In this document: in pieces, positions 204 to 16,199 of the stretch
How positions within the stretch are numbered: the first letter of the stretch is position 1
Layout: each line of letters opens with the position of its first letter
Source: Paracoccaceae bacterium
GTDB taxonomy: Bacteria > Pseudomonadota > Alphaproteobacteria > Rhodobacterales > Rhodobacteraceae
DNA length: 64,000 bases
NCBI GenBank assembly: GCA_002708925.1
Contig: PAPN01000001.1
Coordinates: 62,001 to 126,000 of the forward strand
Reading direction: 5' to 3'
The notes under the pieces: generated by a model
Databases searched by the model: none
The model's input: the letters and a program-made list of their open reading frames with translations, nothing else
What the model was told of the DNA's origin: nothing
Program-made: the position numbers and the translations under genes

Positions 204-2078
204 ATGGATACGCGGCTTCTGAAACACTATGAGCAGGAACTTGGCTTCATCCGCGAGATGGGCGATGAATTCGCTGCGGCCTATCCTAAGATCGCCGGCC
301 GGCTTGGCATGGGCAGCCTGGAGGTCATGGACCCCTATGTCGAACGGCTGATGGAGGGGTTCGCCTTTATGGCCGCGCGAGTGCAGCTGGAATTATCCCT
401 GCAATATCCAAATCTTACCCAGAATATGCTGGAAATCGTCTATCCGCATTTTCTGGCCCCCGTTCCGTCCATGACAATCGCCCGGATGGAGCCCGACGCC
501 GGTCAGGGCAACCTTGCCGCCGGGGTGACCATCCCGCGTGGCACCCAGCTGCGCGGGCAGGTACGCGGGGGCGCGCAGACTGCCTGTATCTACACGACCG
601 GGCAGGATCTGACGCTCTGGCCGCTTCGCGTTACCGAGGCCGAATATATCGACGCGCGCGGCGATCTGGTTGCAGCGGGCATCGGCCGCCATTCCCCGGC
701 CAGGGCCGCGCTGCGGCTGCGCTTGCACCGCACCGACGGTGCCCCGATCTCCGAGCTGCCGCTGGACCGTCTGCGGCTCTTTCTGGGGGGCAGCGCGGCC
801 CTGCCCTGGCAGCTATACGAGGCGCTTCTGGGGCGCGGGATCGGGTTGGCCGGGCGCTCGACCGATCGGCGCGACGATTGGCTGGAATATCTGGGCGCAG
901 GCATCGAGCCCGTGGGCTTTGGCCCCGATGAGGCGCTTTTGCCGACGCCCGGTGCCTCGTTTGAGGGCTACCGGCTGTTGCAAGAATATTTCGCACTGCC
1001 GCAGCGGTTCTTTTTCGTCGATCTGCTGGGGCTTGGCCCCGCGCTTAGCCGGTGCAGCGGCCAGGATCTGGACCTCTATATCCTGATGGAAAGCGGAAAT
1101 CCCGCGCTTGCCGCCATCACCCCCGACCATTTCGAACTGCACGCAGTTCCGGCGATCAACCTGTTTCGCAAACGCTGCGACCGGGTGCATGTGAATGCCG
1201 CCGATGTCGAGCAGGCGGTGATCGTGGATCGAACCGCCCCGCTGGACTTCGAGATTTTCCAGATCGAAAGCGTCACCGGAATTGGTGCCGATGCCCGCGA
1301 TGATCAACCCATTCGGCCGTTTTTCAGCCCCAGTGATATCACGCCAATGGGCGACAGCCATGCGGCCTATTATAGCCAGCGGCGGCGCTTGCGCCAGCGA
1401 TCCGAGCGCCAGCAGCAGCGGGGAACGCGGACGTCCTATCTGGGCTCGGATGTGTTCCTGTCGCTGACCGACGCCCATCAGGCCCCGTTCCGTCAGGACA
1501 TCCGGCAACTGGCGGTCACTGCGCTGTGCACCAATCGGGATCTGCCGATGCTCACCCCGCTTGGGGGCGGAGACACGGATTTCACCCTGCCCGAAGGCGG
1601 CCCGGTGAACGCCATCCGCGCCATTGTGCCGCCCACCCGGCCCCGCACCGCGCTGGCCGAGGGGCAGCAGGCCTGGCAGCTGATCTCGCATCTGAGCCTC
1701 AATTACCTTTCCTTGGTCGATGCCGACCGCGGCAAAGGGGCGGCAGCCCTGCGCGAACTGGTCGGCCTGTATGCGCGACTGGGCGAACCGGCGCTGGCCA
1801 AACAGGTCGAGGGGCTGGCCTCGGTCACGTCCCGGCCGATTGTGCGGCGACTGTCCGATGGGGTGCTCAGCACCGCAGTGCGCGGCCTGGAAATCCGTGT
1901 CGGCTTTGACGAAAGCTATTTCGAAGGCACCGGCTGTTACCTGTTTGGGGCCGTGCTTGAATCGTTCTTTGCCCGCTATGTGGCGCTGAATTCCTTCACC
2001 GAAACCTCGATTCATTCGACCCAGCGCGGAGATATCGCCCGATGGAAGGCCAAAAGCGGCCGCAAGGTGCTGATCTGA
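204..2078 (+). CDS. tssF: T6SS baseplate subunit TssF
   Basis: The 624-residue protein opens with MDTRLLKHYEQELGFIREMG and continues with AAAYPKIAGRLGM and YVERLMEGFAFMAARV, the hallmark N-terminus of TssF (VasA/ImpG, DUF879). TssF makes the baseplate wedge with TssE and TssG; two copies of TssF pair with one TssG. Length is normal for the family. The 3' end overlaps tssG by 37 bases, so the two are probably translationally coupled. The gene follows tssE by four bases, inside the same plus-strand operon. Confidence 0.96.
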   Translation: MDTRLLKHYEQELGFIREMGDEFAAAYPKIAGRLGMGSLEVMDPYVERLMEGFAFMAARVQLELSLQYPNLTQNMLEIVYPHFLAPVPSMTIARMEPDAGQGNLAAGVTIPRGTQLRGQVRGGAQTACIYTTGQDLTLWPLRVTEAEYIDARGDLVAAGIGRHSPARAALRLRLHRTDGAPISELPLDRLRLFLGGSAALPWQLYEALLGRGIGLAGRSTDRRDDWLEYLGAGIEPVGFGPDEALLPTPGASFEGYRLLQEYFALPQRFFFVDLLGLGPALSRCSGQDLDLYILMESGNPALAAITPDHFELHAVPAINLFRKRCDRVHVNAADVEQAVIVDRTAPLDFEIFQIESVTGIGADARDDQPIRPFFSPSDITPMGDSHAAYYSQRRRLRQRSERQQQRGTRTSYLGSDVFLSLTDAHQAPFRQDIRQLAVTALCTNRDLPMLTPLGGGDTDFTLPEGGPVNAIRAIVPPTRPRTALAEGQQAWQLISHLSLNYLSLVDADRGKGAAALRELVGLYARLGEPALAKQVEGLASVTSRPIVRRLSDGVLSTAVRGLEIRVGFDESYFEGTGCYLFGAVLESFFARYVALNSFTETSIHSTQRGDIARWKAKSGRKVLI

Positions 2079-3061
2079 CCCGGCTGGAGCCGCTTGTTCA
2101 GACACCCCAGGCCTATCACATCTTTCAAGCCCTGCGCCTGATCGAGGCCGCGCATCCCCAAAGCCCCAAGCTGGGCCAGTCGCGCCGCCCGTCAGAAGAC
2201 CCGGTACGCCTGACACAAGCGGCCGATCTGGCCTTTCCCCCCGCCACGATCACCGGCTTCGCCCCGCAGGATCAGGACGGACCGGGGCAGCTAAGCCAGC
2301 AGATGTTCGGCCTGTTCGGACCCTCGGGCGCGCTCCCGCTGCACCTGACCGAATATGCCCGTGACCGGCAGCGTAATCACAATGACGCAACCTTTGTCGC
2401 TTTTGCCGACATGTTTCACCATCGGATGCTGTCGCTGCTGTATCGCGCCTGGGCCAGCGGCCAGCCCGCCGCCAGTTTTGACCGACCGGGCGAGGATGGG
2501 TTTGGGCAGATGATCTCGGCCTTTGCCGGTGTCGCCGGAGAGGCCTTTGAGGACCGTGACGCCATGCCGGACGTGGCCAAGCGCCATTACGCCGGGCTGC
2601 TGGCCGCCGCCCCGCGCAGCGAATCCGGGCTGTCGGCGATCCTGTCCGGCATGACCGGAGCCGAGGTTCAGATCGACAGTTTCGTTGGCTCCTGGCTGCA
2701 TCTGGAACCCCATGACCGGGGCCAGCTGGGCGCCGTGACACTGGGCCAGAATGCCAATCTGGGCGAAAGATTCTGGAGCCGCGCCTCTAAATTCCGGGTG
2801 CGCATCGGCCCGATGTCGCTGGCCGATTACAAAAGCCTTCTGCCCGGCACGAAAGGCTACAAACGGCTGGCCGCGATCATCCGCAATTATGCCGGCGACA
2901 CGCTGGAATGGGAGGCGAACCTGATCCTTCTGTCCAGCGAGGTGCCCCCGGCGATCCTCGGCCAGGCGGCGACGCTGGGCCGGACGGCCTGGATCGGTCA
3001 GCGCCCGCCCGGAAATGCCGACGATCTGTGCCTCAGCCCCCCACTCTCCCCTGTAATGTGA
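2042..3061 (+). CDS. tssG: T6SS baseplate subunit TssG
   Basis: The 339-residue protein has the TssG (VasB/ImpH, DUF1305) layout: an early AYHIFQALRLIEAAHP helix, VRLTQAADLAFPPATI, then LPLHLTEYARDRQRNHND, then AFADMFHHRMLSLLYRAW. TssG is the core of the baseplate wedge. The ATG chosen lies inside the end of tssF, giving a 37-base overlap; a downstream start would remove part of the N-terminal region. It ends nine bases before clpV. Length is typical. Confidence 0.95.
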   Translation: MEGQKRPQGADLTRLEPLVQTPQAYHIFQALRLIEAAHPQSPKLGQSRRPSEDPVRLTQAADLAFPPATITGFAPQDQDGPGQLSQQMFGLFGPSGALPLHLTEYARDRQRNHNDATFVAFADMFHHRMLSLLYRAWASGQPAASFDRPGEDGFGQMISAFAGVAGEAFEDRDAMPDVAKRHYAGLLAAAPRSESGLSAILSGMTGAEVQIDSFVGSWLHLEPHDRGQLGAVTLGQNANLGERFWSRASKFRVRIGPMSLADYKSLLPGTKGYKRLAAIIRNYAGDTLEWEANLILLSSEVPPAILGQAATLGRTAWIGQRPPGNADDLCLSPPLSPVM

Positions 3062-3069
3062 GATAAAAC

Positions 3070-5712
3070 ATGTCTGAAATCAACCGTATAGCCCTGTTTG
3101 GCAAGCTCAACTCCCGCGCGTTTCAATCCATCGAAAGCGCCACCGTCTTTTGTAAAATGCGCGGCAATCCCTATGTCGAGCTGGCCCATTACCTGCATCA
3201 GATTCTCAAGGATCAGGACAGCGATCTGCACCGGATCATCCGGTTTTTCGATCTGGACGCCGGGCGCATCGCCACCCAATTGCAACGCGCGCTGGATGCG
3301 TTGCCGCGCGGGGCGACGGCGATCTCGGACCTGTCGCCCCATCTGGAGGAATGCGTCGAGCGCGCCTGGATTCACGCCACGCTGGGCTTTGGGGTGTCTC
3401 AGGTCCGCACCGGGCATCTGCTCTTGGGGATGCTGACCAGCGCGGGCCTGTCGCGCGTGCTGCAAGGCATTTCGCCTGAGCTGGCCGGCATTGACTCGCG
3501 CGCGCTGACCCGCAACTTCGACGATGCAGTGGCCGGATCGCCAGAGACCGGGCTGACGGCGCAGGATGGCTCGCATCTGGGCGATCCGGGCACATCGGCG
3601 GCAGCCATGGCCCCGCAAGCCGAAAGCGGCGAGGCGCTGGCGACCTTCTGCACCGACATGACCGCGCGGGCCGAAGCCGGAGAGATCGACCCGATCGTGG
3701 GCCGCGATGATGAGATCCGCCAGGTCATCGACGTGCTGACCCGCCGCCGCCAAAATAACCCGATCCTGACGGGCGAGGCCGGGGTCGGCAAGACCGCGAT
3801 TGTCGAGGGTCTGGCCCTGCGGATCGCGCGCGGGGACGTGCCCCCGGCGCTGGCCCAGGCACGGCTTTTGTCGCTTGATGTGGGGCTTTTGCAGGCCGGG
3901 GCCTCGATGAAGGGCGAGTTTGAACAGCGGCTGCGGCAGGTGATCGAAGAGGTTCAGTCCAGCCCCCGCCCGATCCTGTTGTTTGTGGATGAAACACACA
4001 CTCTGGTGGGCGCTGGCGGGGCCGCGGGCACCGGGGACGCTGCCAACCTACTGAAACCCGCGCTGGCACGGGGCACCCTGCGCACCATCGGCGCAACCAC
4101 ATGGGCTGAATATAAAAAGCACATCGAGAAAGACCCCGCCCTGACGCGCCGTTTTCAGGTGGTGCAGGTGGATGAACCGGACGAGGCCAAGGCGCTTCTG
4201 ATGATGCGCGGCACGTCTAACATGCTGGAAAATCACCACAAAGTGCAGATCTTGGACGAGGCGCTCTTGGCCGCGATCCGCCTGTCTGCCCGCTATATCC
4301 CGGCGCGGCAGTTGCCCGACAAATCGGTCAGCGTGCTGGATACCGCCTGCGCCCGCGTCGGTATTTCGCTCCATGCGGTGCCCGCCCCCGTCGATGATTG
4401 CCGCCGCCGGATCGACGGGATCACCACGGAACTAGAGATCATCACCCGTGATGAGACCGCCGGGGCCGACATCGGCACCCGCCGCGACACCGCAACCCAA
4501 GCCCTGACCCAGGCCCAGACCGAGCTGACCCAACTGACCGAACGCTGGGAGGCCGAGAAAGCCCTGGTCGCCCGCCTGATGGACCTGCGCGCCCAGCTAC
4601 GCAGCGACGAAGAAGCCGAAAACCGCGCCGCCGCGCTGGCCGAGCTCAAAACCACCCAGGCCGAGCTGGAAACCCTGCAAGGGGAGACGCCGATGATGCT
4701 GCCCATTGTGGATGCCGCCGCTGTCGGCGCGGTTGTGGCGGATTGGACGGGCATTCCCGTCGGCCGGATGGTCAAGGACGAAATGCGCACCGTGCTGAAC
4801 CTGTCGGACCACCTGTCCAAGCGGGTGATCGGCCAGGATCACGCCATGGAGATGATCGCAAAACGGGTCAAATCCTCGCGCGCGGGGCTGGATAACCCCT
4901 CGAAACCCGTTGGGGTTTTCCTGCTGGCCGGCACATCCGGCGTGGGCAAAACGGAAACCGCGCTGGCCATTGCCGAAACCCTGTATGGCGGCGAGCAGAA
5001 CGTCATCACCATCAACATGTCCGAATACCAAGAGGCGCACACCGTCAGTTCGCTCAAAGGCGCGCCTCCGGGCTATGTCGGCTATGGCGAGGGCGGCGTC
5101 CTGACGGAAGCCGTGCGCCGCCGCCCCTATTCCGTGGTCCTGCTGGACGAGGTGGAAAAGGCGCACCCGGACGTGCACGAGATGTTCTTTCAGGTTTTCG
5201 ATAAGGGCATGATGGAAGATGGCGAAGGGCGGATGATTGATTTCCGCAACACGCTGATCCTGCTGACCTCGAATGTCGGATCAGAGGTCATCATGGACCT
5301 GTGCGCCGATCCCGATCTGATGCCCGATCCCGATGGCATGGCCAAGGCGCTGCGCGATCCTTTATTACAGGTTTTCCCGCCCGCGTTGTTGGGGCGGATG
5401 GTGACAATCCCCTATTATCCGCTCTCGCCCGATATGATCGGCCAGATCACCCGCCTGCAACTGGACCGGATCGTCCGCCGCGTGGACGAAGCCCACGGCG
5501 TGCCCTTCACCTATTCGGATGAGGTGGTGGATCTGATCGTCTCGCGCTGCCAAGAGGTCGAAAGCGGCGGGCGGATGATCGACGCGATTGTGACCAACAC
5601 GATGCTGCCCGCTCTCTCGACCGAGGTGCTGACCCGCCAGATCAGCGGCACGCCCCTTGGCCGCCTGGCCGTGGATGTGACCGGGGCCGAGTTCACCTAT
5701 GCCTTCGACTGA
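3070..5712 (+). CDS. tssH: T6SS sheath-disassembly ATPase TssH (ClpV)
   Basis: An 880-residue Clp/Hsp100 AAA+ protein. An N-domain spans about residues 1-150; the first AAA module has Walker [14 protein letters not shown] near residue 235 and Walker [10 protein letters not shown] near 300; a coiled-coil middle region rich in Ala/Glu/Leu lies around 440-540; the second AAA module has [11 protein letters not shown] near 620 and [11 protein letters not shown] near 690. ClpV recycles contracted sheath by extracting TssC. Its location between tssG and a sheath-like gene, rather than beside clpA or clpB partners, supports ClpV over ClpB. Start is nine bases after tssG. Confidence 0.96.
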
Positions 5713-5815: not shown

Positions 5816-8326
5816 ATGTCAACCAGCGGTCAGAAATTCGTCGCCCGCAACCGCGCCCCCCGCGTCCAGATCGAATATGATGTGGAGCTGTACGGCGCTG
5901 AAAAGCAAATCCAGCTTCCCTTTGTCATGGGGGTGATGGCCGATCTGGCCGGTAAATCCGATCTGCCCGTCCCGGCCGTGGCTGACCGTAAGTTCCTTGA
6001 AATCGACGTCGATAATTTTGATGCAAGGATGCGGGCCATCCAGCCCCGAGCCACCTTTGCCGTGCCCAACACCCTGACCGGGCAGGGCAATCTGCCGGTC
6101 GATCTGAGCTTTAACAGCCTCGACGATTTTTCCCCCGCCGCCGTGGCCCGCAAAGTGCCCGCGCTGAAGACGCTGCTGGCGGCCCGAACCCGGCTTCAGC
6201 ATCTGACCACCTATATGGATGGCAAATCGGGCGCCGAAGAGCTGATCGCCCGGCTGATCGCCGATCCCGAGGCGCTCTGTGCTATGTGTGACAGCCTGCC
6301 CGCAGAAACGCCGGACCAGACAGATGCCATCCTGGCCGCGCTGAACGAAGACAAGAGCACGGCAGACAACCCGCAGGATGACCTCGATACTCTTGTTTCG
6401 CAAACTGCGGATGCAAGCGAAGATGATATGCTGGATCTTCTTGAGGAGGACAGTGACACGACCGACGCCGAGCTGGACGATTTTCCGGCAGATATGGACG
6501 CCGAGAGCGGGGACAAACCCGCCGAAGACTCCGATCCTTTCGGCATTCTGACCACGCCCCAACCCGAAGACCGCGATGCGCCGCAAAAGAAATTCCGCAT
6601 CGCCATTCTTGGCGATTTCACTGGCCGCGCCGCGCGGGGGGCGCTTGAAACCGGGGACGCTCTTGCCGCCCGTAAACCGATCAAATTCGATGTCGATACG
6701 ATTGACGATGTGATTGCCCGTTTCGCCACCACTCTGGTTTTGCCCATTGGCAGGGATGGCGCCGGGATCGAGGTGCCGCTACGGACGCTGGATGATCTGC
6801 ACCCGGATGAGCTCTATGAAAACGTGTCGCTTTTTGAAGAACTGGCCGCCCTGCGTCAGCGGGTGGCCAGGGGGGATGGCGCCCAGGCCATCGCCGAGCT
6901 GCAAGACTGGGCCGAGGCGTTCGGCGATCTTAACCTGACCCCGAAACCCCGCGCACGGGGGGCCACCGTGCCCGCCGACCGCAGGCTGTCCGACTTTGGC
7001 GCCCTGATCGGGGATATGACCGGCAACTTGCGCAGTGCCTCGCCCGCGCAGGCGCTGATCGGGCGCATTGTCGGCCCCTTCGTTCAGACCGCGCCGGACC
7101 CCGCGCAGCCGGCCATGCTGGCCGCTGTGGATGCCGCGATCTCGGGCGCGATGAGCGCAATCCTGCACCATCCGGATTTTCAGGCGCTGGAAAGCACCTG
7201 GCGCGCGCTTGACCTTATGGCGCGCCGGATTCCCACCGGGGCGGCGCTGGATATCGTGCTGTATGACGTCTCGGCCGAAGAATGGGCCGCCGATCTGTCA
7301 GCGCAGGAAGATCTGGGCGAATCCGGCCTGTTCCGGCTGCTGGCCGAAGAGCCCCGTCTTGACGCCGCGCAGGGGCCTCTTTCGGCGGTGTTCGGCCTGT
7401 ATACGCTGGAAGAAACCCCGCCCCATGCGCAGCTGATGGCCCGAATGGCCAAGATCTGCAACTGGATGAACGCTCCGTTCCTGGCGGCGATCTCGCCGAA
7501 ATTTCTGGAGGTGCCAAAGCACGAGCGCAACCCGCTGGTGGCCCAGGCCTGGGATGCGCTGCGCGCCCTGCCCGAGGCATCCTTTGTCGGCCTGGCCGCA
7601 CCCCGTTTCCTGCTGCGGCTGCCCTATGGGACCAAGACCGACCCGGTAGAGCCCTTCGATTACGAGGAATTCACCCTGCGCGAGGGGCTGAAAGGAATGC
7701 TATGGGCCAACCCGGTTGTGCTGAGCGCGATTCTGATGGCCGAAACGGCAACCCAAGGCGGCAAAGACATGCAGCTGGGCACAGTCATGAGCGCCGGCGA
7801 CATGCCCTTTCATTATATGACCGATCAATATGGCGATCAGATTGCCCTGCCCTGCACCGAGCGGCTGCTGACCACCCGGACGATGGCCGAGGTCGTGGCG
7901 CGGGGGTATATCCCGCTGCTCTCGATCAAGGGCCGTAACGAGGTGCGACAAGGCTCGTTTCAGGGGCTTGGGCCGGGGATGCTGGCCGGGCCCTGGGGGC
8001 AGGCCCAGAATGAAACCGCCCAGCCCCATACCACGGATGCCGCGATCGACGGGACACTCACCCCCACGGCCCCAAGCAGTGACACGGGGACGGACGATCC
8101 GGCAGACGACCCCGAAAACGAGGATCTGGACGGGTTCGGGGATCTGGACTTCGATCTGGACGATGATGACGGCGGTGACGCCCTTGGCCTCGATCCCGAG
8201 AGCGCCGAGGATGAAGATGACCTCGACGCGCTCTTGGCCGGATTTGGCGATGACGAGGATGGCACCGGCGACGACTTGGATGAAGACATGGACGAAGACC
8301 TGGCCGCACTGCTGGAGGGCCTGTGA
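5816..8326 (+). CDS. Sheath-like TssB-TssC fusion with acidic linker and tail
   Basis: 836 residues. The start is the ATG ten bases after a GAGGA ribosome site; an in-frame ATG 78 bases earlier would only add a non-conserved stretch. Residues ~10-150 are a TssB/VipA domain (PRVQIEYDVELYGAEK, LPFVMGVMADLAG, FNSLDDFSPAAV). An Asp/Glu-rich linker (~152-257) leads to FRIAILGDFTGR, an N-terminal motif of long TssC-like proteins, and a TssC/VipB core to about residue 725 (HPDFQALESTWRAL, IPLLSIKGRNEVRQGSF). The usual C-terminal VipB block after that point is absent; instead there is a ~100-residue, strongly acidic tail ending DLAALLEGL. Homology to sheath proteins is seen; an accessory or capping role rather than main sheath is inferred. 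Confidence 0.82.
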   Translation: MSTSGQKFVARNRAPRVQIEYDVELYGAEKQIQLPFVMGVMADLAGKSDLPVPAVADRKFLEIDVDNFDARMRAIQPRATFAVPNTLTGQGNLPVDLSFNSLDDFSPAAVARKVPALKTLLAARTRLQHLTTYMDGKSGAEELIARLIADPEALCAMCDSLPAETPDQTDAILAALNEDKSTADNPQDDLDTLVSQTADASEDDMLDLLEEDSDTTDAELDDFPADMDAESGDKPAEDSDPFGILTTPQPEDRDAPQKKFRIAILGDFTGRAARGALETGDALAARKPIKFDVDTIDDVIARFATTLVLPIGRDGAGIEVPLRTLDDLHPDELYENVSLFEELAALRQRVARGDGAQAIAELQDWAEAFGDLNLTPKPRARGATVPADRRLSDFGALIGDMTGNLRSASPAQALIGRIVGPFVQTAPDPAQPAMLAAVDAAISGAMSAILHHPDFQALESTWRALDLMARRIPTGAALDIVLYDVSAEEWAADLSAQEDLGESGLFRLLAEEPRLDAAQGPLSAVFGLYTLEETPPHAQLMARMAKICNWMNAPFLAAISPKFLEVPKHERNPLVAQAWDALRALPEASFVGLAAPRFLLRLPYGTKTDPVEPFDYEEFTLREGLKGMLWANPVVLSAILMAETATQGGKDMQLGTVMSAGDMPFHYMTDQYGDQIALPCTERLLTTRTMAEVVARGYIPLLSIKGRNEVRQGSFQGLGPGMLAGPWGQAQNETAQPHTTDAAIDGTLTPTAPSSDTGTDDPADDPENEDLDGFGDLDFDLDDDDGGDALGLDPESAEDEDDLDALLAGFGDDEDGTGDDLDEDMDEDLAALLEGL

Positions 8327-8610
8327 TGGACCGCATCGACACAGACACCATCGTGCTGGCGGCCTGCGCTGACCAAGGCGCCTGGCTGCTGGAGGGCGAG
8401 GATCACATCAACGCCCTGCTTCAAGGGCAGGGCGGCTATCCGGTGCCGGTCAGGCGTATCCGCTTTGCCGATGCCGAGGCGCTGGCCGAATATCTTCTGC
8501 CCCGCGGGCAGGACATCTCGGCGCTGTGGACAATCCACGGCAATGTCCTTGCCCGGCTGCAACAGGCCGGCGAATTGCACGATCTGACGCCGCCAGAAAC
8601 AAAGGCCTGA
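8326..8610 (+). CDS. Small T6SS-linked protein of unknown function before VgrG
   Basis: 94 residues starting at the ATG that overlaps the stop of the sheath-like gene (TGATG), so translation is probably coupled; a GTG one codon earlier is also possible. The stop lies two bases before vgrG. The protein is a compact alpha/beta candidate with no signal peptide or membrane segment (IVLAACADQGAWLLEGED near the start, VPVRRIRFADAEALAEYL in the middle). I do not recognise the family. Sandwiched between sheath-like and VgrG genes, it could be a VgrG-loading or assembly factor, but that is inference from position only. Confidence 0.7.
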   Translation: MDRIDTDTIVLAACADQGAWLLEGEDHINALLQGQGGYPVPVRRIRFADAEALAEYLLPRGQDISALWTIHGNVLARLQQAGELHDLTPPETKA

Positions 8611-8612
8611 CG

Positions 8613-10691
8613 ATGGCAAACGAAAACTTTCTGGAAAACCGCAACGCCAACCTTATATTACCAAACAAAATCAAAGGCTTCCTTGTCCGAGCGCGGATTG
8701 ACGAAGCGCTTAGCTCGATCCCTGAAACAATCGTCGAATTCGTCAGCTCGGATCTTGATCTGGACCTTGGCAAACTGGTGGGGGAACGTCTGCGAATCGA
8801 ACTGGATGCGCCCAAGAAGAAAACACGCTATTTCCAGGGGCGCTGCGTCTCGGCCGAATATCTGGACAGTTTTGACGGCCAGGCCTATTTCCGCGCGCAT
8901 CTGCGCCCATGGCTTTGGTTCCTGACCCAAACCAGCAACTGCCGAATTTTTCAGGATAAAACCGTCATCGACATCCTGCGCGACGTCTTTGGAGAACACG
9001 GGTTTTCCGACTGGCAGGACAAAACCAAGAAAAGCTTCGCCAAACGGCCCTATTGCGTTCAGTATCGCGAATCCGATTTCGATTTCGTCTCGCGGCTGAT
9101 GGAGGAAGAGGGGATTTACTATTTCCACAGCTGCGACAAAACCAAGGAAACCCTGATCCTTGCCGATGATGTCAGCAGCCACCGCCCCCTGACCGATCAG
9201 GCCGAGGTGGAATTCCATGGCAGGACCGAAAAATTTCGCTTTGAGGCGGATCATTTTTTCGAATGGCGCGGGATCGAGGCGATCCAGCCGGGCAAAGTCA
9301 CGCTGTCGGATTTCGATTTCGAAAAGCCCAAGACCGACCTGCAAACCGTCAAATCACTGCCCAAGGGGCGGCACCCCTATACCAAGCTTGAAATCTACGA
9401 TTATCCGGGCCGCCACACGGACGTGAAAACCGGCGAACACCACGCACGCGTCCGTATCGAAGCCCACGCCGCGCAGGCCACGCGGGCCCGTGCGGTGGGC
9501 AATCTGCGGCAGATGGTTGTCGGTGGGCGGTTCAAGCTGAAGGAACACCCCCGCAAGGCCGAAAACACCGATTACATCGTGGTCTCGGCCCGCCATGAAA
9601 TCCAATCGGACAGCAATAATGGGATCAACGAGGTGGTGTCCTCGATCCTGGGGCCGATGCTGGATTTCGACAGCGCCAGCAGCCCCGACATCTATCGCTG
9701 CATCGTCGAGGTACAGCCCGCCCGCGAACCATACCGCGCCCCGCACCGCACCCCGCGGCCCGAAAGCCCAGGAATGCAGACCGCGCTGGTGGTCGGCAAA
9801 AAGGGCGAGGAAGTCTGGACCGACAAACACGGCCGGGTGAAGATCCAGTTCCATTGGGACCGGGACGGCAAAAAGGATGAAACGGCCTCGTGCTGGGTGC
9901 GCTGTGCGGTGCCCTGGTCAGGCAAGGGCTGGGGCATGATGGCCGTGCCCCGGATCGGGCAGGAAGTCGTCGTTCAGTTCGAAGACGGCGATCCCGATCG
10001 CCCTTTGATCACCGGAATGCTGTATAATGGGGACACGAAATTCCCCTATGACCTGCCCAAGAACGCGACGCAATTCGCGCTGAAAACCAACAGCTCGAAA
10101 AAGGGCGGCGGCTTTTCCGAACTGGTGTTCGAAGACAAAAAAGACGCCGAGTTCGTCCGGTTGCAGTCGGAACGGGACTTCAGGCAGATCGTCAAGAACA
10201 ACGCCGAAATTGAGATCGGCCTTGGCCACAAGGACAAGGGTTTTTTCAAACAGACAATCCACGGCGACAAAACCGAAAAGATCGTCGAGGGCGACCACGC
10301 CTTTACCATCGCCAAGGGCAAAGAGACCTGGACCGTCGCCAAGGACCGCGACACCAAGATCGGCGGCAGCGACAGCCTGAAGGTGGACAAAAACGGCAAG
10401 ATCGACATCGGCGCCGCGCTGGAAATCTCGGCCAAGACCAAGATCACCCTGAAATGCGGCGCCTCCAAAATCGAGATGACACCCACCGGGATCACGCTGT
10501 CCTCGCCCAAGCTGGACATGTCGGCCACCGGCATGGCCAAGCTGAACGCCAAGGGCCAGCTTATGCTAGAGGGCAAGGGCATGGCCAAACTGAAGGGCGG
10601 CGGAATGCTGACCGTCGAGGGCGGCGGGATGACTCAGGTGAAATCCAAGGGCTTGCTGATCGTGAAGGGCAGCCTGACCATGATTAACTAA
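8613..10691 (+). CDS. tssI: T6SS spike protein VgrG (TssI)
   Basis: 692 residues from the ATG two bases after the preceding stop. It has the gp27-like first half (AHLRPWLWFLTQTSNCRIFQ, YCVQYRESDFDFVSRLMEEE), then the gp5 OB-fold region (DKHGRVKIQFHWDRDGKKD, CWVRCAVPWSGKGWGMMAVP, VVVQFEDGDPDRPLITGM), then a needle rich in charged and Gly-Met-Ala-Lys repeats ending LLIVKGSLTMIN. VgrG trimers form the tip of the T6SS tail and carry effectors. No extra C-terminal enzyme domain is present, so cargo must be delivered through PAAR or adaptors. Earlier in-frame starts lie inside the previous gene and have no ribosome site. Confidence 0.96.
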   Translation: MANENFLENRNANLILPNKIKGFLVRARIDEALSSIPETIVEFVSSDLDLDLGKLVGERLRIELDAPKKKTRYFQGRCVSAEYLDSFDGQAYFRAHLRPWLWFLTQTSNCRIFQDKTVIDILRDVFGEHGFSDWQDKTKKSFAKRPYCVQYRESDFDFVSRLMEEEGIYYFHSCDKTKETLILADDVSSHRPLTDQAEVEFHGRTEKFRFEADHFFEWRGIEAIQPGKVTLSDFDFEKPKTDLQTVKSLPKGRHPYTKLEIYDYPGRHTDVKTGEHHARVRIEAHAAQATRARAVGNLRQMVVGGRFKLKEHPRKAENTDYIVVSARHEIQSDSNNGINEVVSSILGPMLDFDSASSPDIYRCIVEVQPAREPYRAPHRTPRPESPGMQTALVVGKKGEEVWTDKHGRVKIQFHWDRDGKKDETASCWVRCAVPWSGKGWGMMAVPRIGQEVVVQFEDGDPDRPLITGMLYNGDTKFPYDLPKNATQFALKTNSSKKGGGFSELVFEDKKDAEFVRLQSERDFRQIVKNNAEIEIGLGHKDKGFFKQTIHGDKTEKIVEGDHAFTIAKGKETWTVAKDRDTKIGGSDSLKVDKNGKIDIGAALEISAKTKITLKCGASKIEMTPTGITLSSPKLDMSATGMAKLNAKGQLMLEGKGMAKLKGGGMLTVEGGGMTQVKSKGLLIVKGSLTMIN

Positions 10692-10701
10692 AGGCCGGCC
10701 C

Positions 10702-11286
10702 ATGCAAATCGACGCGCAGTTTAACGATCTTCGAAAGCTTCCCGATTACCCCGCCGCCCGGTTTCTGACCCAAGGCAAGGTCACGCTGCAAACACCGCCG
10801 GACCTGCCCGCCGGGGCCAGTGCCGCTGAGATGTTACAGGCGCTCTGGGACCAGAAGGCACTGATGGATATGCTTCAGGTTCTGGCTCATGCGCTCCCCC
10901 CGCGCGAGGCAACCTGGTGGGCGTGCCTGACAGCCCGCGATCTTGGGCAGGGCAACACCAGCGCCGTTCACGCCGCCGAGGCCTGGGTGCGTCAGCCGGG
11001 GCCACAGACCCGGAGCGCCGCCCGCGCGACCTATGATACCGCCCCCGATGACGATGACACGGTGTTTTGCGCCATGGCCGCCAGCTTTGCCGATGGCACC
11101 ATGGGGCCCGGTGAATATGACGATTACGACGCGCCCCCCGGCGCGGTGGGCGCAGCGGTTTTCGGTCTGCTGCTGATCACGCTCTTTGCCGAAGACAGCA
11201 CGCCCGAGGAACGCGGCCCGCTGCTTCTGGCGCGGGGGCTGGATATTGCACGGGGCGGAAATGGCCAAATCGCAACAGACGCATGA
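10702..11286 (+). CDS. DUF6931-like T6SS-associated protein
   Basis: 194 residues, starting ten bases after vgrG. The central stretch ALPPREATWWACLTARDL, then AVHAAEAWV and a later GAVGAAVFGLL segment, resembles a group of T6SS-linked proteins that I believe is filed as DUF6931; the name should be treated as tentative. There is no signal peptide; the C-terminal GAVGAAVFGLLLITLF stretch is hydrophobic but short. Position between vgrG and the PAAR gene suggests a chaperone or adaptor for spike assembly or effector loading. No catalytic motif was recognised. Confidence 0.7.
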   Translation: MQIDAQFNDLRKLPDYPAARFLTQGKVTLQTPPDLPAGASAAEMLQALWDQKALMDMLQVLAHALPPREATWWACLTARDLGQGNTSAVHAAEAWVRQPGPQTRSAARATYDTAPDDDDTVFCAMAASFADGTMGPGEYDDYDAPPGAVGAAVFGLLLITLFAEDSTPEERGPLLLARGLDIARGGNGQIATDA

Positions 11287-11365: not shown

Positions 11366-11656
11366 ATGCCCATGCCCGCCGCCCGCGTTGCAGACAATCA
11401 CGTCAGCCCGATGGTCGTGGGTGTGGTGCCCTGCGTGGGCGGGCCGGTGGTGACGCCAGTGCCCACGGTGCTGATCGGCAAAATGCCAGCCACCACAGCC
11501 ACGGCAATGGCCGTCTGCATCGGCCCGCCCGATGTGGTGGTAAAGGGCTCGATGACATGCCTGACGGGGCGCAAGCCGCAAGCCCGCGCACTGGATAGCT
11601 GCGCGCAGGGCGGGATGATCGTCATGGGATGCCCAACCGTTCTGGTCGGAGGATAA
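11366..11656 (+). CDS. PAAR-domain spike-tip protein
   Basis: 96 residues consisting of little more than a PAAR domain: PMPAARVADNHVSPM at the start, glycine- and proline-rich turns (PCVGGPVVTPVPTVLIG), then KGSMTCLTGRKPQARALD and a closing GMIVMGCPTVLVGG. PAAR proteins sharpen the VgrG trimer and bind zinc. There is no toxin extension, so it is a bare tip. It follows a 79-base gap after the DUF6931-like gene and ends five bases before the FHA gene, within the same operon. Confidence 0.93.
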   Translation: MPMPAARVADNHVSPMVVGVVPCVGGPVVTPVPTVLIGKMPATTATAMAVCIGPPDVVVKGSMTCLTGRKPQARALDSCAQGGMIVMGCPTVLVGG

Positions 11657-11661
11657 GCCCA

Positions 11662-12957
11662 ATGTCCCTGACCATTCTGGCCCGCAACCCGCTTGAGCCC
11701 CAAGCCGCCCCGATCCGCGCCACGATGCCGGGGGATCGGTTCGCTGTGGGGCGCGGTGCCGATTGCGATCTTGTTCTGCCCGACCCGGAAAAGTTCCTGT
11801 CCAAGCGGCACTGTATTTTAGAACGGCGCGGGGCCGATTACATCCTGACCGACACCAGCACCAACGGCACTTTTCTCAATTACGGCACCGAACCTCTGGG
11901 CGCGGGGCCGACGCCGCTGTCGCACGGGGATGTGATTCAGATCGGCCAATATGAGCTGGTGATCGACATCGCCCCCTCGGCCCTGCCTGCCGAACCCGAA
12001 TTGCCTGCGCTGGATGCCGGGCACAGCCCGTTTGTTTCCAGGCCCGCCGCCCGCCAGGACCTGCCAACCCTGGAGGAAGAGGACGAGGCAGGGGATTTTC
12101 TGAACGATCTTTTGGGTGAGCCCGCCTCGACCGATCCGCTAGGCCACCCCCAACAGCCCGGAGCCAGCGCCCCCGATCATGCCCCCGCCGCCAGTGCGCA
12201 TTTCGCGCCGCCGCAGGCCAGCGGGCCGATGATCCCCGATGATTGGGAGGACAGCCTGATCGCGCCGCAGCCCGAGCCCCCGGCCGAAGAACTGCCTCTT
12301 GAAACTGCCTCTGCGCGCCAGCCGCCCGTTCAGGCGCCTGTTTCGCCCGCAAACCCTCTGGCCCCTGAGACCCCGCAAGACGACGCCCTGCTGCGGGCCT
12401 TTCTGGCAGGGGTTGGTGCCCCTCATTTGCAGCTGTCCCCGCACGAGGCCAAAGAGATCATGGGCCGGGTTGGCCGCATCATGGCCACGACAATCGACGG
12501 GCTGCGCGACATTCTGATGACCCGCTCGGCGCTCAAAAGCGAAATGCGCGTCAACCGGACCATGATCCAGGCGCAGGCCAACAATCCGCTGAAATTCTCG
12601 GTCTCGAAGGAACAGGCGATCGAGGCCATGCTGAAACCCACCACCCCCGGTTACCAGGAACCCGAGGCAGCCGTGGCAGAGGCCCTGCGCGACATCAAGG
12701 CCCATGAGATCGCCACCATGACCGGCATGGAGGCCGCGCTGAAGGATCTTCTGGCCCAGCTTGGCCCCGACAATCTGGCCGCCCGGATCGAACAGAAATC
12801 CGGGCGCATCAGCCGGTTCGGTTCGAAAAAAGCACTCTATTGGGACGCCTACGCGGCCCATTACGCCGAAATCGCAAACGCCACCGAGACCGATTTTCAA
12901 TCCACCTTCGGCAAGGAATTTTCCCGCGCCTACGAAGAGCAGATCAACAAACTCTAG
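11662..12957 (+). CDS. tagH: T6SS FHA-domain protein (Fha/TagH)
   Basis: 431 residues from the ATG five bases after the PAAR stop. The N-terminal FHA domain (about residues 1-105) shows FAVGRGADCDLVLPD, LSKRHCILER and TDTSTNGTFLN, the phosphothreonine-binding loops. A Pro/Ala-rich linker leads to the conserved T6SS FHA C-terminal domain (LRAFLAGVGAPHLQLSP, NPLKFSVSKEQAIEAML, KEFSRAYEEQINKL). Such proteins act in the threonine-phosphorylation switch that activates secretion, opposed by PppA and TagF, both of which are encoded downstream. Confidence 0.92.
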   Translation: MSLTILARNPLEPQAAPIRATMPGDRFAVGRGADCDLVLPDPEKFLSKRHCILERRGADYILTDTSTNGTFLNYGTEPLGAGPTPLSHGDVIQIGQYELVIDIAPSALPAEPELPALDAGHSPFVSRPAARQDLPTLEEEDEAGDFLNDLLGEPASTDPLGHPQQPGASAPDHAPAASAHFAPPQASGPMIPDDWEDSLIAPQPEPPAEELPLETASARQPPVQAPVSPANPLAPETPQDDALLRAFLAGVGAPHLQLSPHEAKEIMGRVGRIMATTIDGLRDILMTRSALKSEMRVNRTMIQAQANNPLKFSVSKEQAIEAMLKPTTPGYQEPEAAVAEALRDIKAHEIATMTGMEAALKDLLAQLGPDNLAARIEQKSGRISRFGSKKALYWDAYAAHYAEIANATETDFQSTFGKEFSRAYEEQINKL

Positions 12958-12969
12958 GAGACCCCGCCC

Positions 12970-13407
12970 ATGCTGACCAAACGCGCCTTTCTTGGCCTTG
13001 CCGCCGCAGCCTTGCTGGCCGCCTGCGCGGGGCCGTCGGACACCAGCGTTCAACTGACCCTGACCGGCGCGGCGGACATGAATGGCGGCGCGCCGGCGCA
13101 GGCCAAGGTTTATTATCTGGCCGATAGCTCGGTCTTTGCCTCGGCGGATTTCTTTGCGGTCTTCAACGACCCGCAGGCCACGCTTGGCACGGACCTGATC
13201 GAGGTCAAAACCTATCAGCTTTCCCCCGGACGGACGATTGCCGACACGGCCTCGTTCCCTGCGGGCGCGCCTGCCCCCAAGGCCATCGGCATCGTCGGAG
13301 CCTTCCGGAACATCAACGGCCGCTTTCTGGCCGTCCGGCCGCTAAGCCCGAACGCATCCAACCCGGTACAGGCCAGCCTGTCCGGCAATTCTGTCACCCT
13401 GCGCTAA
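12970..13407 (+). CDS. tssJ: T6SS outer-membrane lipoprotein TssJ
   Basis: 145 residues with a lipoprotein signal: hydrophobic AFLGLAAAALLAAC, lipobox LAAC with Cys19, and Ala at +2, consistent with outer-membrane sorting. The mature part has the TssJ beta-sandwich pattern (VQLTLTGAADMNGG, AQAKVYYLADSSVFASADFF, LSPGRTI). TssJ anchors the TssJ-TssL-TssM membrane complex through its contact with TssM. It lies between the FHA gene and tssK, as in many T6SS loci. Confidence 0.93.
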   Translation: MLTKRAFLGLAAAALLAACAGPSDTSVQLTLTGAADMNGGAPAQAKVYYLADSSVFASADFFAVFNDPQATLGTDLIEVKTYQLSPGRTIADTASFPAGAPAPKAIGIVGAFRNINGRFLAVRPLSPNASNPVQASLSGNSVTLR

Positions 13408-13429
13408 CGCCGGCCGAAGGAAACCGCCC

Positions 13430-14764
13430 ATGTCCTGGGAAAGCAAAGTTGTCTGGCAAGAGGGGCTGTTCCTTCAGCCGCATCATTTCCAGCAGCAAGA
13501 CCGTTATCTGGAATCTCTGGTCTGTGGCCTGGCCGGTTCCGTGACGCCCTATGCCTGGGGCCTGCGCGAACTGACTCTGGACACGGAACTGCTGAAACTG
13601 GGCAAGCTGGCGGTGAAATCGGCCACAGGCCTGACCCCGGACGGGGCGATCTTTCGCATCCCGCAGGTGGACCCGCATCCGCCCGCGCTGGATGTGCCGC
13701 CCTCGGTGCGCAATTCGGTGGTCTATCTGACCGTCCCGACCCGGCGGCAGGGCGCCCCCGAGGTGGACCTGACCGGCGATCCCGGCGCAACGGCGCGTTA
13801 CCTTCCCTGCGAAGTCGAAGTGACAGATAGCATGGGCCCAGAACGGCGCGCGGTCGAGATGGCCGTGGGCCGGTTGCGCACCCGGCTGGCGCTGGACGTG
13901 GACGAGCTGACCGATCATCTGGTCATCCCCATCGCCCGGATCACCGAGGTGCGCGCCGATGGGGAAATCCTGCTCGACAAGGGGTTCATGCCCTCTTGTC
14001 TGGACACCCGCGCCGCGCCGCCGCTGCATGATTTCCTGCAAGAGCTTGAGGGGCTTTTGTCCCATCGTGCGCAGGCCCTTTCGGCACGGCTGAGCCAGAA
14101 TGGCGGGGCCAAGGGCGTGGCCGAGATTGCCGATTTCCTGCTGTTGATCGCGGTCAATGGCGCGCTGCCCCAGATCCGGCATCTGAGCGCGATCGAGAAC
14201 GCCCACCCGGCCGCAATCTATCAGGTGCTGACCGGGCTGGCCGGGCAACTGGCCAGCTTCATGGCTGCGGACAAAACCGCGCCCGAGTTTCCGCTCTATC
14301 GCCACGACGACCTGACCCACACGTTTCAGCCGGTGATCCAAAGCCTGCGCGAACATCTCTCGGCTGTGCTGGAACAGGGGGCGATCCCGATCCCCATCGA
14401 GGCGCGCAAATACGGGGTCTCGGTGGCGATGATCGCAGATAAATCGCTGCTCAGCTCGGCCAGTTTCGTGTTGGCCGCCAAGGCCGATGTCCCCCCCGAA
14501 AGCGTGCGCCGCCATTTCCCGGCCCAGGCCAAGCTGGGCCCCGTCGAGGAGATCCGCCAACTGGTCAACTCGGCCCTGCCCGGCGTCGATCTGCGCGCCC
14601 TGCCCGTCGCCCCCCGGCAGGTGCCCTACCATGCGGGCGTTGTCTATTTCGAACTCGACAGCGCCAGCCCCTATTGGAAGCAGATGACCTCCTCTGGCGG
14701 GCTGGCGATCCATGTTGCCGGGGATTTTCCGAACCTTGAAATGGAGCTGTGGGCGATCCGCTGA
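13430..14764 (+). CDS. tssK: T6SS baseplate-membrane linker TssK
   Basis: 444 residues with the diagnostic TssK start VVWQEGLFLQPHHFQQQDRY and later FELDSASPYWKQM, NLEMELWAIR at the C-terminus. TssK trimers connect the baseplate wedges to TssL/TssM. Length is normal for the family. A ribosome site (GAAGGAAA) precedes the ATG, 22 bases after tssJ. Confidence 0.96.
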   Translation: MSWESKVVWQEGLFLQPHHFQQQDRYLESLVCGLAGSVTPYAWGLRELTLDTELLKLGKLAVKSATGLTPDGAIFRIPQVDPHPPALDVPPSVRNSVVYLTVPTRRQGAPEVDLTGDPGATARYLPCEVEVTDSMGPERRAVEMAVGRLRTRLALDVDELTDHLVIPIARITEVRADGEILLDKGFMPSCLDTRAAPPLHDFLQELEGLLSHRAQALSARLSQNGGAKGVAEIADFLLLIAVNGALPQIRHLSAIENAHPAAIYQVLTGLAGQLASFMAADKTAPEFPLYRHDDLTHTFQPVIQSLREHLSAVLEQGAIPIPIEARKYGVSVAMIADKSLLSSASFVLAAKADVPPESVRRHFPAQAKLGPVEEIRQLVNSALPGVDLRALPVAPRQVPYHAGVVYFELDSASPYWKQMTSSGGLAIHVAGDFPNLEMELWAIR

Positions 14765-14785
14765 TCCCCCGCCAGAGGCCAAGAC

Positions 14786-16195
14786 ATGACAGACGACGAT
14801 CCTTTTGCCGAACCGACCGACACCGATAAAACGGTGATCCGGCTTAATCCCGGTGGTCGCAGGCTTGACGCCGCGCCGCCCCCACCAAGCGCCGCGCCAG
14901 CCGCGACGCCTGCCGGGCAGATGCCGCCCCCAGTGCCACCCTCTGCGTCATCCCCAGTACCAGAGGCCACATCCGCACCGCATGGGGCGGCATCACCCCG
15001 CATCGACAGCGCCGCCACTGGGCTCAACCCGCTGAATGCCGCCGCGACGCCGCTCTTTTTGCTGGTCGGGCGCATCCGCAACCGCGCCCAGCACAGCGAT
15101 CCGGCAGCATTGCGCGAAAGCGTGGTCGCGGAAATCCGCGCCTTTGAAACGCGCGCCGGGCAGGCCGGAATTCCCGCCCAGACCATCCGCGTGGCCCGCT
15201 ATGCGATTTGCGCGACAATCGACGACGTGGTGCTGAACACGCCCTGGGGCGGGCAAAGCCTGTGGGCCCGGCAAAGCATGGTCGGCACGTTTCACAAGGA
15301 AACCCACGGCGGCGATCGGTTCTATGATCTGCTCGACAAGCTCCAATCCAACCCGGCAGGCAATCGCGACCTGCTGGAGTTCCTCTATATGTGCCTGTCG
15401 CTTGGGTTCGAGGGACGGCTGCGGGTCGAGCCGCGCGGCAGCGAGCGGCATCTGGCCATTCGCGACGGGCTGGCCCGCGCGATCCGCACGCAGCGCGGGC
15501 AATCCGTGCCCGATCTGTCGCCGCACTGGCGCGGCGTGCACATCGCCCATCGGACGCTTTCGGCCTGGATGCCGATCTGGCTGTTTGCCGGGGTTACGGT
15601 TGCGCTGATCTCGGTGGTGTTTTTCGGCCTGTCCTTTGTGCTTAGCCTGGATACCGAAAGACTGCGCGGGCAGTTCCTGTCGCTTGATCTTTCCGGTCCG
15701 GTCGAGCTGGCCCGCCCCGCGCCGCCTCCACCTCCGCCCCCCGAGCCGGTGGTCGTGGTTCAACAGGTCAGTATCCGCGAATTCCTGGCCGCCGAAGTGG
15801 CCGAAGGTCTGGTGACAGTCGAAACCGATGCCAATACCGTGACCATCCGGATAAACGGAGCCGGCATGTTCGGCTCGGCCTCTGATGTGCTGGCCAAGGA
15901 TTTCGGCCCGATCATCGACCGCGTGGCCACCGCGCTGGAGAACGAGGCAGGCCGGATCATCGTGGCCGGTCATTCCGACAATATCCCGATCAATACCGCG
16001 CGGTTTCCGTCCAACACTTTCCTATCGCTCGCCCGTGCGCGGGCGGTGATGGCGCGGATGACGCCCTTGCTTTCGGACCCCACGCGCATCGTCGCCGAGG
16101 GCCGCGCCGACCGCGAGCCCATCGCCCCCAACGACACCGCCGCGGGGCGCGCGCTCAATCGCCGTATTGATGTCATTCTGGTCAAGTCAGGATAA
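14786..16195 (+). CDS. tssL: T6SS membrane-complex protein TssL with OmpA peptidoglycan-binding domain
   Basis: 469 residues. A Pro/Ala-rich cytoplasmic N-terminus (~1-85) precedes the DotU/TssL domain (FFLLVGRI-like stretch, YAICATIDDVVLNTPWGGQS, TFHKETHGGDRFYDLLDKL). One transmembrane helix lies at about 261-288 (IWLFAGVTVALISVVFFG). The periplasmic part has a poly-proline stretch and a C-terminal OmpA-like domain (GRIIVAGHSDNIPINTARFP, LSLARARAVMARM, NRRIDVILVKSG) that should bind peptidoglycan, doing the job of a separate TagL. It is followed four bases later by tssM. Confidence 0.95.
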   Translation: MTDDDPFAEPTDTDKTVIRLNPGGRRLDAAPPPPSAAPAATPAGQMPPPVPPSASSPVPEATSAPHGAASPRIDSAATGLNPLNAAATPLFLLVGRIRNRAQHSDPAALRESVVAEIRAFETRAGQAGIPAQTIRVARYAICATIDDVVLNTPWGGQSLWARQSMVGTFHKETHGGDRFYDLLDKLQSNPAGNRDLLEFLYMCLSLGFEGRLRVEPRGSERHLAIRDGLARAIRTQRGQSVPDLSPHWRGVHIAHRTLSAWMPIWLFAGVTVALISVVFFGLSFVLSLDTERLRGQFLSLDLSGPVELARPAPPPPPPPEPVVVVQQVSIREFLAAEVAEGLVTVETDANTVTIRINGAGMFGSASDVLAKDFGPIIDRVATALENEAGRIIVAGHSDNIPINTARFPSNTFLSLARARAVMARMTPLLSDPTRIVAEGRADREPIAPNDTAAGRALNRRIDVILVKSG

Positions 16196-16199
16196 ACCC

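What the first reader, a model, noticed from the sequence alone, without database searches (positions are those of the whole stretch)
5816..8326. Fused TssB-TssC-like sheath protein with missing C-terminal block and acidic tail
One protein joins a complete VipA domain, an acidic linker and a VipB core, but the conserved C-terminal segment of TssC, after the stretch IPLLSIKGRNEVRQGSF, is replaced by ~100 residues dominated by Asp/Glu with LDALLAGF- and LAALLEGL-type motifs. A protein of this build cannot pack in the sheath in the normal way. It could cap the sheath, chaperone ClpV, or recruit a partner via the repeated D-L-x-x-L-L motif. The comparison with TssC is from memory of the family.
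Basis: partly seen in the sequence, partly recalled or inferred. Interest (0 to 1): 0.7.

Follow-up and report, generated by a model that had tools for sequence, protein, structure and literature searches.

The report
Sheath protein stripped of its couplers
A bacterial spear-gun (type VI secretion system) carries, next to its normal sheath genes, an extra sheath-like protein whose core has lost the parts by which sheath units hook together and which has acidic arms with repeated short motifs; related forms occur in several bacterial groups, and what they do is not yet known.

Summary
Canonical tssA, tssB, tssC, hcp, tagJ and tssE lie just left of the window, so this is an extra sheath-like protein in a complete T6SS operon. 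The fusion itself is in print as roseobacter 'TssCL' (PMC9515649, 2022).

New here: the core is a covalent TssB'-TssC' pseudo-protomer without the TssB N-terminal arm and the TssC C-terminal domain. Forms without the VipA domain occur in its own family (7 of 27), in Burkholderiales and in Planctomycetota; some distant forms also lack the tail. 27 of 58 family genomes with a TssC-like match carry it, each beside a canonical-type TssC. Linkers and tails hold 318 DLDALL-type motifs in 40 proteins (16 expected).

Best reading: here the VipA domain enters the sheath in place of TssB, and the non-polymerising core with its acidic arms works as a sheath-bound adaptor recruiting a partner in several copies. 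The partner is unknown. A cap/terminator role is the main rival.

The parts
5816..8326 (+). Whole CDS, 836 aa: VipA - acidic linker - TssB' - TssC' - acidic tail (a TssCL)
5825..6310 (+). Complete VipA/TssB domain, residues 4-165, with the N-terminal arm; 72% identical to own TssB by BLAST
   Evidence: 10-158, profile 2-151 of 155, 182.8 bits; 4-165 to TssB 5-166, 71.6%
6311..6538 (+). Acidic disordered linker, residues 166-241
   Evidence: 36% Asp+Glu; pLDDT under 50 at 159-173 and 175-237
6593..6865 (+). Second, degenerate TssB segment (TssB'), residues about 260-350, without the N-terminal arm
   Evidence: E 3.7e-7, profile 28-120 of 155; profile 33-125 of 161; 10-residue pLDDT means 82-93
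7112..7996 (+). TssC N-terminal domain (TssC'), residues 433-727, ending at a conserved G-P-W; the C-terminal VipB_2 domain is absent
   Evidence: VipB 434-709; 427-729 on P. aeruginosa TssC1 63-401, Z 27.0, rmsd 4.0, 303 aligned; no VipB_2
7997..8323 (+). Acidic disordered tail, residues 728-836
   Evidence: 39% Asp+Glu, counted from residue 731; pLDDT under 50 at 730-803 and 806-824
8219..8245 (+). Motif 1, DLDALLAGF, residues 802-810
   Evidence: L803, L807 invariant, D804, F810 nearly invariant; helix 803-808
8297..8323 (+). Motif 2, C-terminal DLAALLEGL, residues 828-836
   Evidence: L829, A831, L832, L836 (and D826) invariant; 36 of 37 complete tails; helix 827-835
3070..5712 (+). clpV (tssH), the gene upstream
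   Evidence: clpV upstream on the same strand in 38 of 41 related loci, in most with an ion-channel gene between
8610..10691 (+). vgrG (tssI), the gene downstream
   Evidence: next recognised conserved gene downstream in 36 of 41 related loci, leaving aside a small gene, Qhyp94
204..2078 (+). tssF
2042..3061 (+). tssG
10702..11286 (+). DUF6931 gene of the operon
   Evidence: homologues in 31 of 41 related loci (28 + 3)
11629..12957 (+). FHA (tagH)
12970..19781 (+). tssJ, tssK, tssL, tssM
19793..20404 (+). tagF

Best explanation
It is a TssCL, an accessory sheath-like protein of a complete T6SS that also has TagJ. Shown by sequence and model: residues 242-727 are a single-chain TssB'-TssC' pseudo-protomer that lacks the TssB N-terminal arm and the TssC C-terminal (VipB_2) domain; this member also carries an intact second TssB domain at its N-terminus and acidic disordered regions with conserved amphipathic DLDALL motifs. 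Inferred: the lost parts are those that make the handshake coupling sheath units, so the core cannot polymerise; the VipA domain pairs with ordinary TssC and is built into the sheath in place of some TssB, so that the pseudo-protomer and the arms hang from the sheath; and the motifs (2 here, up to 20 in relatives) recruit a T6SS partner in several copies. The partner is not identified.
For: Intact VipA domain (182.8 bits; own TssB 192.6). The window's clade of fused VipA domains branches with TssBs of its own lineage (100/97), apart from the roseobacter fused domains; supported branches force at least 2 changes. The second TssB segment starts at TssB-profile position 25-34 of 161 in 39 of 40 family ORFs. 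No VipB_2 here or at E<=0.001 in 10 distant relatives. The core aligns as one chain to single-chain sheath proteins from after their N-terminal arm to before their last ~90 residues: pyocin R2 3j9q_A 24-291 of 385, Z 15.3, rmsd 3.9, 236 aligned. The handshake elements are named in PMC5807055 (passages). It sits beside a canonical-type TssC in 27 of 27 family genomes, and 13 of 13 genomes with distant or Planctomycetota forms have a VipB_2. Motifs: 318 against a shuffled mean of 16.2 (maximum 27) in 40 proteins; C-terminal motif 36 of 37; repeated in Planctomycetota tails L148 and L146. Conserved order clpV - core - vgrG.
Against: The VipA domain is optional: 7 of the 27 family genomes have a core with no VipA found upstream, and on the larger tree its presence changes at least 5 times, so sheath entry through VipA cannot be the function of the class. 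Tail-less cores exist, so the motifs are not essential to the class either. No partner is shown: the best motif look-alikes in the operon are TssM 327, the TssA N-terminus and FHA 157, and TssC's N-terminal helix ranks 18 of 7179. VipA incorporation is inferred from identity, not from a complex model. In 7 genomes compared, the fused VipA is clearly closest to its own genome's TssB only in L039 (86% against 75-79% fused-to-other values of 76-79%); the window's is 74% to its own and 72-75% to the others. The mapping of the handshake strands to VipB_2 is my inference.
Confidence: 0.36

Rival explanations
1. Sheath cap or length terminator: a unit with the sheath's stacking faces but no receiving handshake domain adds to the distal end and stops or seals growth.
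For: The core lacks both the receiving domain and the donor arms; it was found only beside canonical-type sheath genes; forms without VipA show that the core has a role of its own.
Against: The lost domain is the inner, coupling layer, so stable end binding is not obvious; in the VipA-fused form incorporation with ordinary TssC would not end growth; the operon has its own TssA, and TssA Nt1 domains are modelled to dock at the distal end in P. aeruginosa (PMC11106082, passages).
Confidence: 0.26
2. ClpV partner: the core imitates a sheath protomer and the motifs imitate the ClpV-binding TssC helix, so that it stores, recruits or restrains the disassembly ATPase.
For: clpV lies upstream in 38 of 41 related loci and in 7 of 7 further VipA-less loci, and next to the tail-less core in L149; TssC N-terminal helices (DFADLLQKEF) share the L-x-x-L-L spacing.
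Against: TssC's helix ranks 18 of 7179 in the motif scan; in the TagJ class, P. aeruginosa ClpV1 does not need that helix (PMC4239648, passages) and this operon has TagJ; an ion-channel gene lies between clpV and the core in most loci; no ClpV was found on the Eleftheria plasmid that carries a tailed form (chromosome not searched).
Confidence: 0.15
3. Assembly chaperone: the pseudo-protomer binds free TssB or TssC, or the baseplate, and prevents or seeds polymerisation.
For: Covalent TssB'-TssC' without coupling elements; co-occurrence with canonical sheath genes.
Against: No such core in 31 of the 58 family genomes with a TssC-like match (some are incomplete), so not generally needed; no interaction data.
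Confidence: 0.12
4. Ordinary sheath subunit variant, or a decaying gene fusion without function.
For: It is made of sheath-type domains and annotated as TssC in relatives.
Against: Coupling elements absent; core kept at 46-74% identity in long open frames of many genera; invariant motif residues across phyla.
Confidence: 0.05

Closest known systems
TssCL of roseobacter T6SS1 (Leisingera sp. ANG-M7; PMC9515649, 2022)
   Same: Two VipA hits and one VipB hit in one protein, separate tssB and tssC kept in the cluster, Rhodobacterales; low identity of the VipB part to TssC (about 30%).
   Different: Its main text does not hold the words acidic, linker, repeat, disordered or VipB_2. It reports TssCL only in Alphaproteobacteria and proposes a recent fusion of sheath genes; here cores without VipA occur also in Planctomycetota and Burkholderiales. 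This member is half as long (836 against 1684 aa).
Canonical TssB/VipA and TssC/VipB sheath pair
   Same: Fold of TssB and of the TssC N-terminal domain.
   Different: Single chain; core without the TssB arm and the TssC C-terminal domain; added acidic regions.
Second TssC of Agrobacterium (TssC40/ImpD, Atu4340; PMC3702570)
   Same: A second, non-redundant TssC-like protein beside TssB and TssC.
Single-chain sheath proteins of R-pyocins, AFP/PVC and contractile phages
   Same: The core, about 255-732, aligns to them as one chain (e.g. PlPVC1 Z 16.3, R2 pyocin Z 15.3-15.6).
   Different: They have an N-terminal arm and a C-terminal part that the alignment to the core leaves out.

Membership tests
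TssCL (PMC9515649) | Two PF05591 hits and one PF05943 hit in one protein | tested here: met
TssCL (PMC9515649) | Separate tssB and tssC in the same cluster | tested here: met
TssCL (PMC9515649) | Sequence similarity to roseobacter TssCL | tested here: met
   53-54% over residues 242-727 to Leisingera proteins; core trees
Functional sheath large subunit TssC (TIGR03355) | Score over the curated cut-off of 271.5 bits | tested here: not met
   146.2 bits
Functional sheath large subunit TssC | C-terminal VipB_2 (gpW/gp25-like) domain | tested here: not met
Sheath small subunit TssB (PF05591 / TIGR03358) | Full-length domain over cut-off | tested here: met
   for the N-terminal domain only: PF05591 182.8 bits, cut-off 24, profile 2-151 of 155; TIGR03358 193.3 bits for the whole protein, cut-off 97.25
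Second TssC of TssC40/ImpD type | Has VipB_2, as the two ImpD-like proteins examined do | tested here: not met
   the Agrobacterium sequence itself was not compared
ClpV-binding protein | Binding of the tail motif to the ClpV N-domain | not testable with these tools
   no complex prediction of separate chains was possible

The most novel reading that the evidence does not exclude
There is an unrecognised class of T6SS component spread over at least Pseudomonadota and Planctomycetota: sheath pseudo-protomers, made of covalently joined TssB' and TssC', stripped of the coupling elements and kept beside a working sheath. It has been upgraded in steps, with an acidic multivalent motif tail and, again and again, with a captured TssB domain that plugs it into the sheath. 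It sets where a partner gathers on the sheath, or when the sheath stops growing.
Probability: 0.35. Interest if true: 0.75.

Novelty: new member of a known kind. Interest (0 to 1): 0.55.

Why it matters
How T6SS sheath length, end sealing and recycling are controlled is not settled. A natural sheath unit that keeps the fold but has lost the coupling parts, kept in about half of the T6SS-type genomes of one family and in distant phyla, points to a role that can be tested directly by deletion and imaging. The motif arrays give a concrete handle for finding the partner. It also recasts the published TssCL: the deepest forms and 7 of 27 family forms carry no extra TssB domain, so the VipA fusion looks like a module that comes and goes rather than the origin of the protein.

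Tried and rejected
ClpV-helix mimicry as a specific explanation: the motif PSSM ranks TssC's N-terminal helix 18 of 7179 windows of the window's own operon, behind TssM 327, the TssA N-terminus and FHA 157 among others; kept only as a rival. TssA N-terminus as model of the motif: 20 of 55 TssA hits match a loose pattern near their start (the 55 include repeats of one genome and truncated hits), too weak to claim. FHA: 27 of 30 FHA ORFs of family loci hold an [FL]L..LL stretch, mostly DFLDDLL, but I did not compare T6SSs lacking TssCL. A resemblance to the FliM 'EIDALL' CheY-binding motif is recalled from memory and was not tested. ImpD/TssC40 as the same protein: the two second TssCs found keep VipB_2 and are distant. 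A PDB search with the last 44 residues found nothing at E<=10. No promoter or terminator signal clearly above chance around the gene. A hidden VipA near the forms without VipA: none by tblastn at E under 0.05 in L041, L066, L083 or at E under 0.1 in the seven short family forms L157-L163 (L158 is the same locus as L066). My first reading of the core tree, one gain of VipA and one loss (5 of 40 rows without VipA), did not survive a fuller sample: 14 of 49 rows, at least 5 changes; the odds of the best explanation were lowered from 0.40 to 0.36 for that reason. An early claim that the fused VipA scores above own TssB was wrong (it counted both stretches) and is mended.

Limits: trees are midpoint-rooted and their deep rows are long branches. 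Genome searches with the profile scored only 3 to 5 candidates per genome in the large draws, so counts are lower bounds. Searches for print. Of the papers listed, only PMC9515649 is seen to describe the fusion; most others were not opened. I found no paper on a TssBC form lacking the handshake domain, in that library only.

Full report
What is there. The ORF at 5816-8326 is open and 836 aa long. Pfam gives T6SS_VipA (two stretches, best 10-158) and VipB at 434-709 (142 bits), with no VipB_2. Scanned apart, the N-terminal domain scores 182.8 bits and the second VipA stretch 28.5 bits (cut-off 24) at profile 28-120 of 155 (E 3.7e-7). The order is therefore VipA, acidic linker, degenerate TssB (TssB'), TssC N-terminal domain (TssC'), acidic tail.

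Setting. The gene is in a complete T6SS operon. Left of the window lie a Ser/Thr kinase gene, tssA, tssB, tssC with VipB and VipB_2, hcp, an ImpE/TagJ gene and tssE. The window continues with tssF, tssG, clpV, this gene, vgrG, DUF6931, FHA, tssJ, K, L, M and tagF. Apart from this gene, the draft genome has one VipB, one VipA and one VipB_2 match, all in the canonical tssB and tssC.

Already in print. [quoted passage not shown] The window protein meets that description. The terms acidic, linker, repeat, disordered and VipB_2 do not occur in its main text. It is the only paper in the library with the word TssCL together with 'type VI secretion'.

The family. A core search over fetched loci gave 40 open frames (the window's own included) that match within residues 242-730 at 46-74% to others, 601 to 1940 codons long, some cut by contig ends. 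Invariant residues run through TssB', TssC' and the two tail motifs. In 248 genomes of the window's family (drawn evenly), 58 have a match to the core-and-tail profile at E<=1e-15. 27 of them hold a core scoring 734-966 bits, and no other match exceeds 174 bits. All 27 also show a second, canonical-type TssC match of 151-171 bits. 7 of the 27 have open frames of only 588-746 codons; all seven were fetched, and none has a VipA match (best E 0.18) although clpV lies upstream and vgrG downstream in 7 of 7. At E<=1e-60, a draw of the class gave 2 of 385 genomes, the window's own being one; the family of G184 gave 4 of 17; and the phylum of the genome with the Planctomycetaceae locus 9 of 294, that genome included. 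Thirteen of these genomes were given to (all's and one search's hits), and 13 of 13 have VipB_2.

What the core lacks. In P. aeruginosa the handshake is made by two TssC strands (beta 11, 12), a donor strand from a neighbouring TssC (beta 13, C-terminal) and a donor strand from the N-terminus of a neighbouring TssB (beta 1) (PMC5807055, passages); that the TssC strands lie in VipB_2 is my inference. A TssB profile made here from 55 TssBs matches the core's TssB' in 39 of 40 family ORFs and begins at position 25-34 of 161 (L065 gave no match), so the arm is missing. TssC similarity stops at residue 358 of 497 by BLAST. In ten distant relatives Pfam finds VipA and VipB, both over cut-off, and no VipB_2 at E<=0.001; VipA starts at profile position 24-28 in nine, but at 9 in L149, which may keep part of the arm. 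AlphaFold2 (29-row alignment) folds residues 240-730 mostly at pLDDT 80-95 with weaker stretches near 370-405 and 600-625; most of the N-terminal VipA domain, the linker and the tail come out with low confidence, with short helices at 803-808 and 827-835 on the two motifs, themselves near pLDDT 50. VIA-align fits 427-729 to TssC1 63-401 (Z 27.0, rmsd 4.0, 303 aligned), and 259-729 as one chain to the R2 pyocin sheath 24-291 of 385 (Z 15.3, rmsd 3.9, 236 aligned). That is a sheath subunit from after its arm to before its last part.

Evolution. In a first core tree 5 of 40 rows lacked VipA, four of them basal. With the six further VipA-less family forms and three distant forms added, 14 of 49 rows lack it: the deepest rows still do (tail-less L149 and L127, L148, Eleftheria terrae L117, Planctomycetaceae L063, then L161 and the two Limibaculum), but VipA-less rows are also nested among fused ones, one of them (L157) sister to the window's clade, and supported branches force at least 5 changes (midpoint root, long branches at the base). 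So the VipA domain comes and goes. The fused VipA domains of the window's clade branch with TssBs of that clade, apart from the roseobacter fused domains (at least 2 changes forced; rows include identical copies), which fits more than one capture of TssB, or exchange between the two genes. Some distant cores end right after a conserved Gly-x-Trp with no tail (L127, L149-L156 except that L148 and L146 have motif-bearing tails). L149, L152 and L154 lie among T6SS genes. In L127, L150, L151, L153, L155 and L156 my BLAST queries, taken from Alphaproteobacteria, found no T6SS gene in the fetched stretch; those genomes have VipB_2 elsewhere.

The motifs. Linkers and tails of the 40 proteins hold 318 matches to a DLDALL-type pattern, against a mean of 16.2 (maximum 27 of 200) in composition shuffles; 36 of 37 complete tails end in the motif, and the 37th (L039) has Ala for its leading acidic residue. 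The number per protein runs from 1 to 20. Among other operon genes of these loci a similar pattern is seen in TssK (20 of 29), TssC (6 of 18), TssM (6 of 26) and singly in TssF, ClpV, FHA, the ion channel and PAAR. A PSSM scan of the window's own operon ranks TssM 327, TssA 3 and FHA 157 highest, TssC's N-terminal helix 18th of 7179.

Reading. The intact VipA domain is most simply explained by pairing with TssC inside the sheath. Fusions of msfGFP to VipA assemble into sheaths (PMC5797969, passages), so a load on the small subunit is tolerated. The core cannot be coupled and so is probably carried rather than built in. The conserved motifs in disordered acidic regions look like recruitment sites. 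Each of these steps is inference. A cap or terminator built on the missing receiving domain is the strongest rival, because core forms without VipA must work without that anchor.

Noticed in passing
L118:14118-14999 and neighbours of 33 of 41 related loci: An ion-channel gene (Pfam Ion_trans) sits between clpV and the core gene in most of these T6SS operons; it is absent from the window operon and from L039, L040, L067 and L069.
   Followed up: partly
window 10702-11286: A DUF6931 gene follows vgrG here and has homologues in 31 of 41 related loci (28 + 3 by two queries); unknown function, part of the operon.
   Followed up: no
L127, L150, L151, L153, L155, L156: Core proteins with no T6SS gene found in the fetched stretch; their genomes have a VipB_2 match elsewhere. 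L153 has an extra N-terminal part.
   Followed up: partly
L117 and L126 (Eleftheria terrae plasmid NZ_CP106952.1): A T6SS cluster with four hcp genes and no ClpV match on the plasmid; tssL and tssM are not among the annotated genes of the stretches seen (the gene table is incomplete); RebB R-body genes lie nearby.
   Followed up: partly
FHA proteins of related loci, and window 11629-12957: 27 of 30 FHA ORFs hold an [FL]L..LL stretch, mostly DFLDDLL; the window's FHA has FLNDLLGEP, a possible cousin of the tail motif.
   Followed up: partly
L007:8773-13140 (left of the window): A subtilase, a peptidoglycan-binding protein, a HAMP-domain protein and a Ser/Thr kinase gene run directly upstream of tssA.
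   Followed up: no
L152:2198-5128 (G561): A 977-codon open frame (start codon not assigned) with about 500 codons before the TssB' segment that match no Pfam family.
   Followed up: no
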